NCBI GenBank assembly: GCA_903824675.1
Contig: CAIJXV010000002.1
Coordinates: 1 to 52,851 of the forward strand
DNA: 52,851 bases
Reading direction: 5' to 3'
DNA from: an uncultured bacterium
GTDB taxonomy: Bacteria > Verrucomicrobiota > Kiritimatiellia > CAIKKV01 > CAIJXV01
Made by a program: the position numbers and the translations under genes. Shown here piece by piece: positions 10,654-31,999 of this stretch; position 1 is the stretch's first letter, and every line of letters starts with the position of its first letter. The notes under the pieces are model-generated. The model did no database searches. It saw nothing but the letters and a program-made list of their open reading frames with translations, and was not told where the DNA came from.

Positions 10654-12942
10654 ATGGACCGGGACAAAAATAATTTCGAACTGATCTGCGGCATTGGCGA
10701 ATTGCTCGATTCATTCGACAAAACCCAGTCCCTCGATCATTTTCTGGCCGCCGTCGCCGGACGTATCTCCGATTATCTTTCGGCCGAAATCTGTTCCATC
10801 TACCTTTTCGACGAAATTCACCAGGAAGTTGTCCTTCGCGCCAGCAAGGGGCTCCCCCCCGAAGCCATCGGTTCCGTCCGGCTTAAACTGGGCGAAGGCA
10901 TTACTGGCGCCGCCCTCAAAGAGTTGCGTGCCATTCTGGAAATTAACGCCGCCACCAACCGTCATTTCAAGTTCATTCCCAAAGTGGACGACGAATCCTT
11001 TAAAGCTTTCGCCGCCATTCCCATCACCAAGGGACTCGCCCGGATCGGGGTTTTGGTCCTTCAACACCGCAAGGCCGGCTATTTCAACCTCGAAGATGTC
11101 AAAACCCTTCGCCTGATCGCTTCCCAACTGGCCATGGCCATTGAAAATGCCCGTCTATTGATCACGCTCCATAGTCCCACCGATCTGCCCCCAGCCCCGC
11201 TGGAAGACAAGTCCCCCGCCGATCCGCCCACCCGGTTTATCAAATGCAAACCGGCTTCGGAAGGCATTGCGGCCGGGATCTTGCATGTCATGAATTTCAC
11301 CGCGGATGACTGGATGATCCCCCCCCCCGAAGGAACTCCAGCCTATACCCGGGCCGATTTCGAACGGGCCCTCCGTCAAACAGCTGAACAGATTGAAATG
11401 CTCCAGTCCCAACTGGCGGAAAAATTGACTGACACCGTTTCGATGATTTTTAATGCTCACCTGCTGATTCTCAAGGATGGCCAGTTTTCCGGCGACATTC
11501 TTCTCAAGATCGACGCCGGTACCCCCGTCCTTACGGCCCTTCACACCGTGATGGATAATTTTCTTCAGATTTTCAGCCGGAGTGCGAATCCGCGAATCCG
11601 CGAAAAAAGTCAGGATCTGCGGGATCTCTGCCGCCGGATTGCCCACAATCTGGCCCGACGCAGTGAGGAATCCACCGATTTCACCGGGGCCGTGATCGTC
11701 GCCCATGAACTGCTGCCTTCCGACATGTTGAAATTGGTCGCCGCTCGCGTCGCGGGCATTATCCTGATCAATTCCGGAGCCACCGCCCACATTGCCATCC
11801 TGGCCCGCTCGCTCTCCATCCCCATGGTGTTGGCTGACACCTCCGTTTTACCCCGTCTCTGCTCGGGCCTCCGGGTCCTGATGGACGCGCATCAGGGTAA
11901 TCTCTTTCTGGAGCCGGATCCCACGATTCTGGATCATTATCGGCACCTGATCGAGAATCCCGACTGGATCGCTCGCGCCGCGGAAATGATGCAACCCACC
12001 ACCCATACTCGCGATGGCACCCGCATCAAATTGCTCGCCAACATCAACCTCCTTAGCGACCTGAAAACCGCACACCGGTTGAAAGCCGAAGGCATCGGTC
12101 TCTATCGCACCGAGTTTCCGTTCCTGATTCGAAATGATTTCCCCTCCGAGGAAGACCAATATCAGATCTACCTCAAAATCAATCGGGAGATGGGCGAGCA
12201 GGAGGTGGTCTTCCGGACCCTCGACATCGGCGGCGATAAAATGCTGTCCTATTTCCCGCATCTCGACGAGGCGAATCCCTTCCTCGGCTTGCGCGCCATC
12301 CGGTTTTCCCTCCGGAATCGCCAGATTTTCGTCCAACAGTTGCGCGCCCTCCTCCGGGCCGGGATCGATCGTCCCCTGAAAATCATGTTTCCCCTGATCT
12401 CCTCCGTGGACGACCTGCTTCTCGCACGATCCATCGTCGCCCAGTGCATCCATGAACTGGCCGCCGAATCCATCCCTCATAACGCCCGACCGCATCTCGG
12501 AATCATGATGGAAATGCCGTCCGCCGTGGCTGTGGCCGACGAATTGACCGCCGAAGCTGATTTTCTATCCATTGGCACCAATGATCTGATCCAGTATCTC
12601 CTGGCCGTCGACCGGACCAATAAGCAGATATCCGGCTGGTATCAACCCCACAACCCGGCGGTGCTCCGCGCCATCGGCCAGATCACGGCAGCCGCCCTGA
12701 AGCATAAAAAACCGATCTCCATCTGCGGCGATATGGCTGCGGAGCCAGCCCTGATCCCGTTTCTTATCGGGGTGGGATTACGAACCTTCAGCCTGCAACC
12801 GACCTCGCTCCCCAAGGTCCAGGAATTGATTGCTCAAGTCGATCTCCGGGACGCGATCAAACAGGCGGACGCACTGTTAAAAATGGGCCGGGTCAGTGAA
12901 ACCGCCCGTTTTCTCAATCTGCCGGCCCAGTGGCCGGAATAA
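10654..12942 (+). CDS. ptsP: GAF-containing PEP-protein phosphotransferase (PtsP, enzyme I-Ntr)
   Basis: A 762-residue protein with an N-terminal GAF domain (about 1-150) followed by a full enzyme I: the HPr-interacting part, the phosphohistidine domain with SGATAHIAILARSL (His379), and the PEP-binding TIM barrel with GIGLYRTEFPFL, FRTLDIGGDKMLSY, LGIMMEMPSAVAVAD, FLSIGTNDLIQYLLAVDR and the active CGDMAAEP (Cys691). It autophosphorylates from PEP and passes phosphate to an NPr/HPr carrier, sensing small molecules through GAF. It is regulatory rather than a sugar importer in most Gram-negatives. No HPr or EIIA gene is in the window. In-frame start codons upstream lie in or before the promoter. 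Confidence 0.93.
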   Translation: MDRDKNNFELICGIGELLDSFDKTQSLDHFLAAVAGRISDYLSAEICSIYLFDEIHQEVVLRASKGLPPEAIGSVRLKLGEGITGAALKELRAILEINAATNRHFKFIPKVDDESFKAFAAIPITKGLARIGVLVLQHRKAGYFNLEDVKTLRLIASQLAMAIENARLLITLHSPTDLPPAPLEDKSPADPPTRFIKCKPASEGIAAGILHVMNFTADDWMIPPPEGTPAYTRADFERALRQTAEQIEMLQSQLAEKLTDTVSMIFNAHLLILKDGQFSGDILLKIDAGTPVLTALHTVMDNFLQIFSRSANPRIREKSQDLRDLCRRIAHNLARRSEESTDFTGAVIVAHELLPSDMLKLVAARVAGIILINSGATAHIAILARSLSIPMVLADTSVLPRLCSGLRVLMDAHQGNLFLEPDPTILDHYRHLIENPDWIARAAEMMQPTTHTRDGTRIKLLANINLLSDLKTAHRLKAEGIGLYRTEFPFLIRNDFPSEEDQYQIYLKINREMGEQEVVFRTLDIGGDKMLSYFPHLDEANPFLGLRAIRFSLRNRQIFVQQLRALLRAGIDRPLKIMFPLISSVDDLLLARSIVAQCIHELAAESIPHNARPHLGIMMEMPSAVAVADELTAEADFLSIGTNDLIQYLLAVDRTNKQISGWYQPHNPAVLRAIGQITAAALKHKKPISICGDMAAEPALIPFLIGVGLRTFSLQPTSLPKVQELIAQVDLRDAIKQADALLKMGRVSETARFLNLPAQWPE

Positions 12943-15253: not shown

Positions 15254-15484
15254 ATGAGCGACCTGAACATTGAACTGTGTCCGGAAACGGGAATTTGCTC
15301 GATCATCAAGGCCGATGGGACCAAGATCGATTTGATGCCGGATGAAGTGGCCCAAGTCAAGGATGCCGCGGGGAATGTGGACGCCATCCGGCAGGCCCTC
15401 GGGCAGATCGATGCAAGTTTTGCCGAACAACTGGCCGCAGAAAATGTGGATCAGATCGCCAAAAGATTCGGGAAGAAAGCCTAA
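15254..15484 (+). CDS. Small protein of unknown function, 76 residues
   Basis: A small acidic, soluble protein that begins SDLNIELCPETGICSI, continues with a DLMPDEV motif and a helical C-terminal half, and ends FGKKA. I start at the ATG at 15254, which has a GAGGAAA site. The frame is open upstream to 15092, but that would overlap the M42 gene and cross a hairpin. The two Cys (ETGIC context) are close together and could be redox or metal ligands; that is speculation. Its stop overlaps the convergent ferredoxin-nitroreductase stop at 15481-15484. Confidence 0.7.
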   Translation: MSDLNIELCPETGICSIIKADGTKIDLMPDEVAQVKDAAGNVDAIRQALGQIDASFAEQLAAENVDQIAKRFGKKA

Positions 15485-16311
15485 AGGCGTAGCGTTTTAA
15501 CCCGCGCGCCATCATCCCGTTGGACACAGCGCGGATAACGGACTCCGGGCACGCCAAATAACATCGCATAATACCGGTGTTTTTCGGGAATCTCAAAGAG
15601 CGGCCGAAGCTCGGGCAAGGTCCCCAAAAGGATACTGAGCATCCCCCACCACACGGTGCCCAACCCGTGGGCTTGGGCCATTAACTCAAAATAGGCCAGG
15701 GCCAGGGAAATATCCTCTTGGGGACAGGGCGCGTCCAAAGGCGCCGAAATAATCAAGGCATGCGGAGCGCCCCGAAAAATGATATCGGCTTGGTGCTCAT
15801 AATAGGCCGGAACTGCGGCCTGCAAATAGGCGACTTGCCCTGGAATCCGGCCGGATTTAAGGGCTTCCGCCACGGTTGCCAGAACTTTTTCCCGGATTTT
15901 TTGCATCCGGTCTTTATCTCCAATCACGGTAAAAGTCAGCTCCCGGCGATTCACTGCCGTCGGCGAATTGGCCAAGGCCCCCAGCATTTTCTCTATCAAG
16001 GCTGGCGCCACATTTTCATCCTTGTAGCGCCGGATACTTCGCCGACTCCGCACCAGGTTTATCATCTGCTCCCCGGTCGGCAGTTGCTCGGGTGTCACCC
16101 GCAAACTGTCCTCCGGATTCCGCCCCAGAATCGAAAGGGCACCCGTTGGACAAATCGCCAGGCAATGCTGGCATTGTAAACACTGGCTTTCCGCTTCCGG
16201 TTGGATCCGGGGAATTTCACGCCCTACCTGTTGAATAATCCGTACCGGACAATCCTGGGCACACGTTCCGCACCGCGTACAGCGGGATTCATTGATGATG
16301 AAATTGAGCAT
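15481..16311 (-). CDS. Ferredoxin-nitroreductase fusion protein
   Basis: A 276-residue flavoprotein. The first 60 residues form a two-cluster bacterial ferredoxin (SRCTRCGTCAQDCPV and SQCLQCQHCLAICPTGAL). A nitroreductase-fold FMN domain follows (RSRRSIRRYKDENV, NSPTAVNRRELTFTVI, a substrate/FMN region GAPHALIISAPLDAP, and GLGTVWWG). Such fusions pass electrons from the clusters to FMN to reduce an unknown substrate, often in anaerobes. The frame stays open far upstream, but the sequence there belongs to the DUF2752 gene. The ATG at 16311, with AAGGA about 10 bases upstream, fits the ferredoxin start; an ATG at 16320 is the alternative. It is probably the last gene of the dprA-led run. Confidence 0.88.
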   Translation of the reverse strand: MLNFIINESRCTRCGTCAQDCPVRIIQQVGREIPRIQPEAESQCLQCQHCLAICPTGALSILGRNPEDSLRVTPEQLPTGEQMINLVRSRRSIRRYKDENVAPALIEKMLGALANSPTAVNRRELTFTVIGDKDRMQKIREKVLATVAEALKSGRIPGQVAYLQAAVPAYYEHQADIIFRGAPHALIISAPLDAPCPQEDISLALAYFELMAQAHGLGTVWWGMLSILLGTLPELRPLFEIPEKHRYYAMLFGVPGVRYPRCVQRDDGARVKTLRL

Positions 16312-16328
16312 GATGAGCATTTCCTTTT

Positions 16329-16760
16329 TCAGTTCCCCATCGTTTCTACCAGATAAATCCAGTTGATCACAACCGCCGTCACCCCCGCGGCTAACATGCC
16401 CCAACGCCGACGTGTGGGGATCCGCGCCCACTCCCAACCCGCATAACCCCGTGCCCGGCGTAAGGCGCACACGATCATCAATAGCACCAACCCCACCCCG
16501 GCCACAACCATCAGGGGCTGGAAACGCACGGCATCCATAACCCGCCCGGACGCCAGGGCCTTCAAGGACCGGGTCACACCGCAGGTAAAACAGGGATGAC
16601 CCGTTAAACGAAAAAATAAACACCGGGGTGCCCAACGCAAAGGCCAGATGATGCCGACCAACCCAACGATCAGGGCTGCGCCACCCCATCGGAGGACAAA
16701 ACTTTCAATGGTATCGGCTGGCGATTTCCGCAGAACCACCCTATTGCTTTGATGAACCAT
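16329..16760 (-). CDS. DUF2752 membrane protein
   Basis: A 143-residue membrane protein with three predicted helices. The family signature is clear: the LTGHPCFTCGVTRSLKALASG motif with two Cys, followed by a DAVRFQPL region. DUF2752 proteins are small inner-membrane proteins of unknown function, common in Bacteroidota and PVC bacteria and often encoded near TM2-type proteins, as here. It is 118 bases downstream of the signal-peptidase-like gene and 17 bases upstream of the ferredoxin-nitroreductase start. Confidence 0.85.
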   Translation of the reverse strand: MVHQSNRVVLRKSPADTIESFVLRWGGAALIVGLVGIIWPLRWAPRCLFFRLTGHPCFTCGVTRSLKALASGRVMDAVRFQPLMVVAGVGLVLLMIVCALRRARGYAGWEWARIPTRRRWGMLAAGVTAVVINWIYLVETMGN

Positions 16761-16878: not shown

Positions 16879-17493
16879 TCAAGGCTCCAGGGACTGACCG
16901 GCGCGCATCAGGGGCCAATAGATCTTCACCACGCGCCCCTCGATTTCTTTCCGCTTCAAGGGTCCCCAGTACCGGCTGTCGAAACTATTGTGTGCATTGT
17001 CGCCCAGGAGAAAAAACTCGCCGGCCCGGAGATCCACATGATCGGTCAGGGTTTTCAATGACGCATGAGGAGCATTGGTCGCGGCCAGACGATACCCCCC
17101 GGCCCTGCGAGCCAGTGTCGCAAACATCGGCGGATCGTCCAGAGGACGACCGTTGATCAACACATGGGGCGGCTCGATCCGAACCCGTTCCCACGGCAAT
17201 CCCACGACTCGCTGGATGAAATAGGAGCCGGACTTCGACGTCAGGCTATCCGCGCGATAGAGTACAATTTCGCCCCGCCGGGGTTCCCGAAACCGATAGG
17301 TCAACCGATCGATAATCACTTGATCACCGGGTTTGATTTGCGCCTGATCGTTGATTTTATCCATCTCCACCTTGGCCCCGAGCAAAACCGGTTCCATGGC
17401 CGCGGTCCGTACATTGAAAGTCCCTACCGCTTCTTCAAGCAACAGAGACCGGCCCAGCGACAGCACGACCCCTATCAGGCCACAGATCGCCAA
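16879..17493 (-). CDS. Signal peptidase I homologue with both catalytic residues replaced
   Basis: The frame encodes 204 residues if it begins at the TTG at 17493. The SPase I fold is clear: a transmembrane helix, the box B region VRTAAMEPVLLG, box C/D GDQVIIDRLTYRFREPRRGEIVLYR, GSYFIQRVVGLPWERV and box E LLGDNAHNSFDSRYWGPL. The nucleophile position (SM.P in active enzymes) is Ala32 and the general-base Lys position is Arg63, so protease activity is not expected. The helix extends upstream of the TTG (HLRALAICGLIG), so the true N-terminus probably lies in the overlapping membrane-protein gene. See the C11 tract at 17511-17521. A chaperone-like or regulatory role is speculation. Confidence 0.8.
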   Translation of the reverse strand: MAICGLIGVVLSLGRSLLLEEAVGTFNVRTAAMEPVLLGAKVEMDKINDQAQIKPGDQVIIDRLTYRFREPRRGEIVLYRADSLTSKSGSYFIQRVVGLPWERVRIEPPHVLINGRPLDDPPMFATLARRAGGYRLAATNAPHASLKTLTDHVDLRAGEFFLLGDNAHNSFDSRYWGPLKRKEIEGRVVKIYWPLMRAGQSLEP

Positions 17494-18052
17494 AGCCCGG
17501 AGATGCGAAGCCCCCCCCCCCGTCCCGCCGGGCTCGATCCTGATAGGCCTCCACTACCGTAATCAACCGCCAAAGGGCAAACCAGAGCAAAATCCCAGCC
17601 GCCCAGCCGGGGCCGGGCGAAAGCCGCTGGAGCCGGGCAAATCCCCATACCGATGCCAGGTGCAAGCCCAGAAAAAAAACACCGCGCATCCAGCGGCGAT
17701 TGAAAAATTGCCCCACCCCCAATGGGAAGAATGGCAGGGCGGCCAAAAGTCCCGCCACAGCCGGTCGCCAGGAACCGCTCCGATCATTGGCCCGATAATG
17801 CGCATCGACCAGCATCAGGAGGTAACCGGCCAATAATCCCATAAAAACGCCAAAAGCGGGAAACGGCGAGGCCACTTCACCCGAGAGTAACAACCCGATA
17901 AACGCCACGGATCCCAAGGTAAAAAAGATAAACCACCCGACCCCGGCCCAAACCCGCCCCGCCCGATAGTGTCCGGCGCCCGGCAGAAGGAGGGAGAATA
18001 AAACCGCATCCCAAGACGTCACCCCAACCCGTTCCGATTCGGCGACACTCAT
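17435..18052 (-). CDS. TM2/DUF5683-like membrane protein, probably frameshift-joined to the signal-peptidase homologue
   Basis: A 205-codon frame with about six hydrophobic segments and two related motifs, LLPGAGHYRAGRVWAG and FFPLGVGQFFNRRWMRG, like the Gly-x-Gly-x-Phe/Tyr turns of TM2-type proteins. The last real segment is TVVEAYQDRARRD. Immediately after comes the G11 run (minus strand), and the remaining ~30 residues look like out-of-frame sequence. Removing one G would fuse this frame with the signal-peptidase-like frame into one protein of about 390 residues. Its ATG overlaps the pfkB-like stop by four bases. Confidence 0.7.
   Translation of the reverse strand: MSVAESERVGVTSWDAVLFSLLLPGAGHYRAGRVWAGVGWFIFFTLGSVAFIGLLLSGEVASPFPAFGVFMGLLAGYLLMLVDAHYRANDRSGSWRPAVAGLLAALPFFPLGVGQFFNRRWMRGVFFLGLHLASVWGFARLQRLSPGPGWAAGILLWFALWRLITVVEAYQDRARRDGGGGFASPGFGDLWPDRGRAVAGPVSVA
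17511..17521. repeat. C11 homopolymer at the junction of two overlapping frames
   Basis: Eleven consecutive C (G on the coding strand) lie exactly where the membrane-protein frame must switch to the signal-peptidase-like frame. With 10 bases the two frames are continuous. Long G tracts slip during replication or transcription, and they are also a common sequencing-error site. Confidence 0.9.
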
Positions 18053-31217: not shown

Positions 31218-31999
31218 GCCTGATTGAAGAAGCCCTAAAAAAACAACAGGAAGAATTCGGCAACTCCGCATCACCCCATATCGCCTCGCCTCAGGGGGAT
31301 AAGATCCCGCCCACCCTCAAAAAAACTGAAGCCCCTCCCACCGCTCCGTCCCTCACCCCTCCCCCCCTCCCCGTTGCCCCCGCCAAATCTTCCTCCAAAA
31401 CCCTGCTTCCGGTGATTATTCTCATCTCGGTTTGCGTCGTCCTGCTGGTTGTCACTTTCTGGTTGATCTCAGCCGGTTTTCTTAAAATGTTCATGGCACC
31501 CAAAGTCCCCAGCAAGGCCCCCGTCATCGCGACTGCGCCGGCAAAAACACCGGAACAGCAGCCCCCCACGCCCATTGGAGTTGCCATTCCCGCTCCTGCC
31601 GTCATGGGGACACCCCCCGCAGCCCTTTCGATCCCCAAGGCGCTTCCCTTGGCCCCTGAGCCCCCCCCCCCGTTAGTCGGCAGCCCCGCCACGTCAACGG
31701 TCGTCCCCTCTCAGCCCCCTGTCCCCCAAAAGGCCGTCGTCGTCCTCGATGAGGAAGGACAACCGCCCACCGGGCGAACCGTCACGCCATTACCCAGTAA
31801 GAAAATCACAGTCTGGCCGGAAATGACTATCACCGGAATTATCGGCGCAGATCTCGCCAATGGAGCGGCCTTGATTAACGGTCAACTGATCAGCGTCGGG
31901 GAGTCATATCAGGGGGTCAAAATTCTATCCATCAGCCGTAACAGCATTAAGGCCGTGTACGATGGGGAAACCCGGACCTTGAAAGTGGGCGGAAAATAA
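31214..31999 (+). CDS. GspB/ExeB-like type II secretion accessory protein
   Basis: A 261-residue protein. MSLIEEALKKQQEEFG is the conserved GspB start. One transmembrane helix (about 60-85, LLPVIILISVCVVLLVVTF) is followed by a Pro/Ala-rich periplasmic linker (about 90-195) and a C-terminal T2SSB-like domain (about 200-261): TITGIIGADLANGAALING, VGESYQGVKILSI and RNSIKAVYDGETRTL. It pairs with the ATPase ExeA to guide secretin assembly. The start is ATG 31214 in an ATGA overlap; the frame extends upstream into exeA but that is not coding. Confidence 0.85.
   Translation: MSLIEEALKKQQEEFGNSASPHIASPQGDKIPPTLKKTEAPPTAPSLTPPPLPVAPAKSSSKTLLPVIILISVCVVLLVVTFWLISAGFLKMFMAPKVPSKAPVIATAPAKTPEQQPPTPIGVAIPAPAVMGTPPAALSIPKALPLAPEPPPPLVGSPATSTVVPSQPPVPQKAVVVLDEEGQPPTGRTVTPLPSKKITVWPEMTITGIIGADLANGAALINGQLISVGESYQGVKILSISRNSIKAVYDGETRTLKVGGK

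What the first reader, a model, noticed from the sequence alone, without database searches (positions are those of the whole stretch)
16879..17493. Signal peptidase I homologue lacking both catalytic Ser and Lys
All structural boxes of SPase I are present (VRTAAMEPV, IIDRLTYRFREP, GDNAHNSFDSRYWG), yet the nucleophile position is Ala32 and the base position is Arg63 in the translated sequence. Loss of both catalytic residues with good retention of the rest suggests a retained non-proteolytic function, such as binding signal peptides or a partner peptidase. It is encoded in a run of envelope and DNA genes, not next to an active lepB in this window.
Basis: partly seen in the sequence, partly recalled or inferred. 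Interest (0 to 1): 0.72.

Follow-up and report, generated by a model that had tools for sequence, protein, structure and literature searches.

The report
Catalytically dead signal peptidase I paralogue
The window holds an extra, membrane-anchored relative of the enzyme that clips signal peptides off exported proteins; it has lost both catalytic residues, belongs to a patchy family of Kiritimatiellia bacteria that has lost them repeatedly, and in this genome its gene is also broken in two by a run of eleven Gs.

Summary
The gene is real, on the minus strand, and encodes a signal peptidase I (S26) domain (Pfam PF10502, 8e-30). Ser90 is Ala32. The general base Lys145 lies in box D (YIKRAVG) and is Gln94 here (YFIQRVVG), not Arg63, which is not a catalytic position. 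The genome has an intact LepB elsewhere (contig C86, Ser+Lys).

Relatives form a patchy accessory family in about 20 of 346 Kiritimatiellia genomes, outside the LepB clade, usually fused to an N-terminal multi-helix, TM2-like domain. Of 24 members 14 lack Ser (8 Ala, 3 Thr, 3 Gly) and 5 lack Lys. Box E is intact in all 24. One origin of the Ser-less members is rejected (p 1e-7; at least 8 changes), so loss is recurrent. All 19 LepBs compared keep Ser+Lys.

The given coordinates cover only the 3' half of the gene. The N-terminal half (18052..17435) lies in another frame, with the break at an 11-G run: a sequencing error, phase variation or early decay.

Most likely a non-cleaving SipA/SpsA-like protein that may bind peptides; decay of this copy is the main rival. 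Inactive S26 proteins are already known, so this is a new variant.

The parts
16879..17493 (-). S26 (signal peptidase I) domain ORF: 204 aa from a TTG, stop included; 3' half of the gene
   Evidence: AlphaFold model mean pLDDT 87, SPase fold in PDB search
17428..17490 (-). predicted N-terminal membrane anchor helix of the S26 part (residues 2-22)
   Evidence: helix H2-22 in the model; aligned with the anchor region of SPase I relatives
17398..17400 (-). Ala32 (GCC) at the nucleophile position (E. coli Ser90), box B VRTAAMEPV
   Evidence: alignment with 1t7d and 4wvg
17305..17307 (-).
   Evidence: Arg common here in Ser+Lys LepBs
17212..17214 (-). Gln94 (CAG) at the general-base position (E. 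coli Lys145), box D YFIQRVVGLPWERV
16972..17004 (-). intact box E GDNAHNSFDSR (Gly272, Asp273, Ser278, Asp280, Arg282 equivalents)
   Evidence: kept in 24 of 24 paralogues
17435..18052 (-). upstream ORF (205 aa): N-terminal multi-helix TM2/DUF6677-like domain that relatives carry fused to the S26 domain
   Evidence: HMM of the fused N-terminal domains hits it at 7.2e-9; weak DUF6677; TM2 hit in the Omnitrophota relative
17511..17521 (.). C11 run (G11 in the coding sense) where the reading frame breaks between the two halves
   Evidence: GC by codon phase changes frame here; runs of 11 or more C/G occur at only 7 places in the genome
18049..19125 (-). upstream neighbour, PfkB-family sugar kinase, overlapping the start of the gene by 4 bases
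16329..16760 (-). downstream neighbour, DUF2752 membrane protein

Best explanation
This is a divergent, catalytically dead paralogue of signal peptidase I from an accessory Kiritimatiellia family, built as an N-terminal TM2-like multi-helix domain plus an S26 domain. The housekeeping LepB, with Ser and Lys, is encoded elsewhere. Shown: homology, Ala/Gln in place of the Ser/Lys dyad, retained box E and (predicted) fold, recurrent dyad loss in the family, and a frame break in this copy. Inferred: the protein sits in the inner membrane with its S26 domain in the periplasm, and uses the retained SPase groove to hold extended hydrophobic segments of exported proteins (signal peptides or membrane anchors) without cutting them. 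It would act as a holdase or assembly factor, or as a modulator of LepB access, as has been proposed in general terms for streptococcal SipA. In this genome the gene is either switched off or split by a change in a G11 run, or the frame break is a sequencing error.
For: S26 domain by Pfam and NCBIfam. AlphaFold model pLDDT 87; best PDB folds are SpsB, including the substrate-peptide complex 4wvi, and the inactive SipA 4n31 with TM-score 0.76 on the target. Ala32/Gln94 against Ser90/Lys145. Intact LepB on contig C86. 24 paralogues: 14 without Ser, 5 without Lys, box E kept in all; 19 of 19 LepBs Ser+Lys. LepB clade 97/99 excludes the paralogues; at least 8 nucleophile and 5 base changes among them; a single Ser-less clade rejected, p 1.3e-7. 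All replacements of Ser are small residues (A, T, G), although P, Y, C, F and L are as reachable by one base change from TCN codons (inference: the site is constrained). dN about 0.2-0.3 against dS about 1.3-1.7 between the closer Ser-less members.
Against: No biochemical data for any member. No conserved neighbour that would name a partner, except an M90 peptidase in one family. The window copy has the frame break and, among complete members, the fewest LepB-invariant positions (25/49) and a long branch (1.61). In SipA itself, mutating the groove (V99R) did not affect function (PMC4049620), so groove binding is unproven even in the precedent. dS is near saturation, so dN/dS is rough, and part of the divergence may predate loss of Ser.
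Confidence: 0.5

Rival explanations
1. This copy is a decaying gene. A dispensable SPase I paralogue is under relaxed selection, has lost Ser, then Lys, and now its frame; it has no present function in this species, whatever the family does elsewhere.
For: Frame break at the G11 run; both catalytic residues lost, which only this copy and the truncated G043 copy show; fewest LepB-invariant positions among complete members (25/49); long branch; patchy family, about 20 of 346 genomes.
Against: The 204-codon S26 ORF has no stop and keeps the usual codon-position GC pattern. Box E and the predicted fold are intact. The sister lineage G012 also has Ala with an intact ORF and stands alone without the N-terminal domain, so an S26 part on its own can persist.
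Confidence: 0.35
2. Frame switching (phase variation) at the G11 run: slipped-strand mispairing toggles between a fused TM2-S26 protein and the separate halves. (This concerns expression and can hold together with the best explanation.)
For: C/G runs of 11 or more lie at only 7 places in 4.24 Mb, two of them in this window. Another, on contig C74, splits a multi-helix O-antigen-ligase-like gene in the same way. Homopolymeric G/C runs in surface-related genes are the classic phase-variation substrate (general knowledge).
Against: No read-level or multi-strain data; homopolymer runs are also where assemblies err most; no other genome of the family is held.
Confidence: 0.15
3. The protein is an active protease using other catalytic residues, for example a nearby Thr or Lys.
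For: Thr30 (E. coli Ser88 position, oxyanion hole) and the Arg146, Asp280 and Arg282 equivalents are kept; archaeal and SipW-type SPases use a different base (general knowledge).
Against: Ala cannot be a nucleophile and Gln is not a general base; no Ser, Thr or Cys at the nucleophile position and no Lys or His at the base position. SipA, with a Lys two residues away, is inactive (PMC4049620).
Confidence: 0.04
4. The Ala/Gln states are sequencing or assembly errors.
For: Each is one base change away from Ser (TCC to GCC) or Lys (AAG to CAG); the assembly is a fragmented draft (124 contigs).
Against: Ala is shared with the sister lineage G012 and six further members; two errors falling on exactly the two catalytic codons are very unlikely.
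Confidence: 0.02

Closest known systems
Streptococcus pyogenes SipA/LepA (signal peptidase-like pilus assembly factor; PDB 4n31, 4k8w)
   Same: SPase I fold with both Ser and Lys replaced (Asp48/Gly85), no detectable peptidase activity, groove retained (PMC4049620). Found by fold search with the window model and weakly by sequence.
   Different: SipA is a single-anchor Gram-positive protein encoded in a pilus cluster with sortases, and has lost box E features (Gly272 to Asn, Ser278 to Arg). The window protein keeps box E, has Ala/Gln, belongs to a TM2-like-fused family and has no pilus or sortase genes beside it.
Staphylococcus aureus SpsA
   Same: A second, inactive SPase I homologue beside an essential active one (PMC12445088), as in this genome.
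   Different: Not compared by sequence here; Gram-positive; no N-terminal multi-helix domain (my knowledge).
Kiritimatiellia LepB (own genome, contig C86)
   Same: S26 domain, boxes B, D and E; 35% identity over the S26 core.
   Different: LepB has PTGSMQPT and YIKR (Ser+Lys), a long insert between boxes B and D, and forms a separate clade (97/99).
TM2-like-fused S26 proteins of Kiritimatiellia, Verrucomicrobiia and Omnitrophota found here
   Same: Same domain order and the same lost or varied dyad.
   Different: In them the two domains are one ORF; in the window they are split by a frame break.

Membership tests
Signal peptidase I / Peptidase_S26 (homology) | S26 domain match above the curated cut-off | tested here: met
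   PF10502 104 bits against cut-off 22.9; TIGR02227 91.5 against 47
Signal peptidase I / Peptidase_S26 (homology) | SPase I fold | tested here: met
   Predicted model pLDDT 87; all significant PDB hits are SPase I or SipA
Signal peptidase I (active enzyme) | Ser nucleophile in box B | tested here: not met
   Ala32
Signal peptidase I (active enzyme) | Lys general base in box D | tested here: not met
   Gln94
Signal peptidase I (active enzyme) | box E Gly272, Asp273, Ser278, Asp280, Arg282 | tested here: met
   all five kept
Signal peptidase I (active enzyme) | cleaves signal peptides | not testable with these tools
   needs biochemistry
SipA-type inactive SPase of pilus clusters | encoded with pilins and sortase | tested here: not met
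   Pfam of the genes flanking the window copy: PfkB, Glucosamine_iso-like, KdtA, DUF2752, nitroreductase, DUF3108, M42
SipA-type inactive SPase of pilus clusters | SPase fold without Ser/Lys | tested here: met
Kiritimatiellia TM2-like-S26 paralogue family defined here | groups with the paralogues, outside LepB | tested here: met
   LepB clade 97/99 excludes it; sister to G012 (92/89)
Kiritimatiellia TM2-like-S26 paralogue family defined here | N-terminal multi-helix domain fused in one ORF | tested here: inconclusive
   domain present just upstream (E 7e-9) but in another frame; members G012 and G004 lack it altogether

The most novel reading that the evidence does not exclude
Kiritimatiellia carry an accessory family of TM2-like-domain-fused signal peptidase I proteins that has turned, many times independently, from a protease into a non-cleaving periplasmic peptide-binding factor. 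In this species it may additionally be switched by slippage in a G11 run. It would be a Gram-negative counterpart of SipA, with a natural series of Ser+Lys, Ser-less and dyad-less members.
Probability: 0.3. Interest if true: 0.62.

Novelty: new variant of a known kind. Interest (0 to 1): 0.42.

Why it matters
Inactive signal peptidases are known from a few Gram-positive bacteria (SipA, SpsA). A Gram-negative family with at least eight nucleophile changes, and an intact LepB in each of the 19 genomes where it was compared, gives a comparative series for asking what a signal peptidase scaffold does without proteolysis. It also warns annotators: these proteins score well above the cut-offs for 'signal peptidase I' although most should not cleave anything, and the Lys of SPase I must be read in the YIKR box, not in the preceding VxKxxY box.

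Tried and rejected
2) 'Arg-type LepB' as an anomaly of the class: an artefact of the same mis-assignment. 3) Recent error or mutation in one genome: rejected, since Ala is shared with G012 and dyad loss recurs. 4) One ancient loss of Ser: rejected by the AU test. 5) Functional partner from gene neighbourhood: no shared neighbours across loci, except that all eight f31-family paralogues lie next to an M90 metallopeptidase gene; no match to it was found in the window. 8) Regex-only tables of motifs mis-called several rows and were replaced by the alignment. 9) Literature searches for dyad-less SPases in Verrucomicrobiota or Kiritimatiellota found none.

Full report
What is there. The ORF lies on the minus strand, 17493..16879, starting at a TTG. 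It is an S26 protein by Pfam (PF10502, 104 bits against a cut-off of 22.9) and NCBIfam (TIGR02227). The window is one whole contig (C2) of a 4.24 Mb draft genome, 96% complete. A search of that genome finds a second S26 gene, on contig C86, just downstream of what reads as elongation factor 4 (EF4/LepA); it is a 370-aa LepB with PTGSMQPT and YIKR. Named relatives place the lineage in the Kiritimatiellae/Verrucomicrobiota.

Which residues are lost. PDB-guided alignment puts Ala32 at the Ser nucleophile. The general base is the K of LDYIKRAVGLPGD in E. coli; the window has SYFIQRVVGLPWERV, so the base is Gln94. Box E (GDNAHNSFDSR) is complete.

The gene is longer than stated. Close relatives are single ORFs of 279-419 codons (stop to stop) with an N-terminal multi-helix domain before the S26 domain. 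A profile of that domain finds the ORF immediately upstream in the window, 18052..17435 (7.2e-9 among all window ORFs). The Omnitrophota member's N-terminus matches Pfam TM2. GC content by codon phase shows the low-GC second position switching phase at the C11 run 17511..17521. The two halves are therefore most simply one ancestral gene whose frame breaks at an eleven-base homopolymer. Runs of 11 or more C/G occur at only seven places in this genome. One of the others splits an O-antigen-ligase-like gene in the same way (named by eye), and another in this window does not break its ORF. Error, phase variation and decay cannot be separated without reads. The S26 half keeps its own anchor helix, and two relatives (G012, the sister in the tree, and G004) consist of anchor plus S26 only, so a separate S26 protein is viable in principle.

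The family. Whole-genome searches of 346 class members found about 20 genomes with such paralogues, 12 of them full-length long forms. An alignment of 24 paralogues, the LepBs of 19 of the same genomes, and the E. coli and S. aureus PDB sequences gives: nucleophile Ser 10, Ala 8, Thr 3, Gly 3; base Lys 19, Gln 2, Met 2, Ser 1; box E and Arg146 24/24; LepB Ser+Lys 19/19. Only the window copy and the truncated G043 copy have lost both. On a maximum-likelihood tree built without the two catalytic columns, LepBs form a clade (97/99) outside which all paralogues lie; the window copy is sister to G012 (Ala/Lys; 92/89). At least eight nucleophile and five base changes are needed among the paralogues, and holding the Ser-less members together is rejected (p 1.3e-7). 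Between the closer Ser-less members dN is about 0.2-0.3 and dS about 1.3-1.7 (near saturation, so rough), which indicates purifying selection in those lineages. The replacements of Ser are always small residues (A, T, G), although bulkier ones are as reachable by mutation; this suggests a constrained groove (inference).

How it probably works. The model (pLDDT 87) is closest in the PDB to SpsB, including its substrate-peptide complex, and to inactive SipA. The best-supported picture is a membrane-anchored SPase scaffold that binds but does not cut. Dyad loss and fold retention are shown by sequence and prediction; binding and biological role are inferred. In SipA a groove mutation had no effect (PMC4049620), so even there the groove's role is open. 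For this particular copy decay is a serious rival: frame break, both residues lost, and the lowest retention of LepB-invariant positions among complete members (25/49).

Context. The window neighbours (upstream a PfkB kinase, a glucosamine-isomerase-like protein and KdtA, then by eye a XerC/D-type recombinase and topoisomerase I; downstream DUF2752 and a ferredoxin-nitroreductase) suggest no partner. The only recurrent linkage is in family f31, where all eight paralogues lie beside an M90 (MtfA-like) metallopeptidase gene, overlapping it by a few bases in the two loci checked.

Known or new. Inactive S26 proteins are established (SipA; SpsA, PMC12445088). I found no report of this TM2-like-fused, repeatedly inactivated family in Kiritimatiellota (open-access papers only). 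Hence: a new variant of a known kind, of moderate interest.

Noticed in passing
L297 (own genome, C74:37739-37749): A second G11 run splits a multi-helix O-antigen-ligase-like gene into two overlapping frames, as in the window gene; possible phase variation or homopolymer error.
   Followed up: partly
window 31661-31671 and 11319-11328: Two more long C runs (C11, C10) inside coding ORFs that stay in frame.
   Followed up: partly
L079, L082, L261-L265, L292: In family f31 all eight S26 paralogues lie next to an M90 (MtfA-like) metallopeptidase gene; in the two checked the genes overlap by a few bases, suggesting translational coupling.
   Followed up: partly
L084 (G271) and L240 (G272): Two similar full-length lepB genes in tandem in two genomes of family f35.
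   Followed up: no
L069:1-260 (G043): The closest sequence to the window copy (Ala/Met) is cut off at its N-terminus near a contig end and may also be frame-broken there.
   Followed up: partly
window 15481-16689 (-): The ORF called from its first ATG overlaps the DUF2752 gene by about 360 bases; its ferredoxin-nitroreductase part starts only about 125 residues in, so the true start is probably internal.
   Followed up: no
L002, L019-L033, L059-L068 and others: Kiritimatiellia LepBs carry a long (about 100 aa) insert between boxes B and D, absent in E. coli at that place.
   Followed up: no
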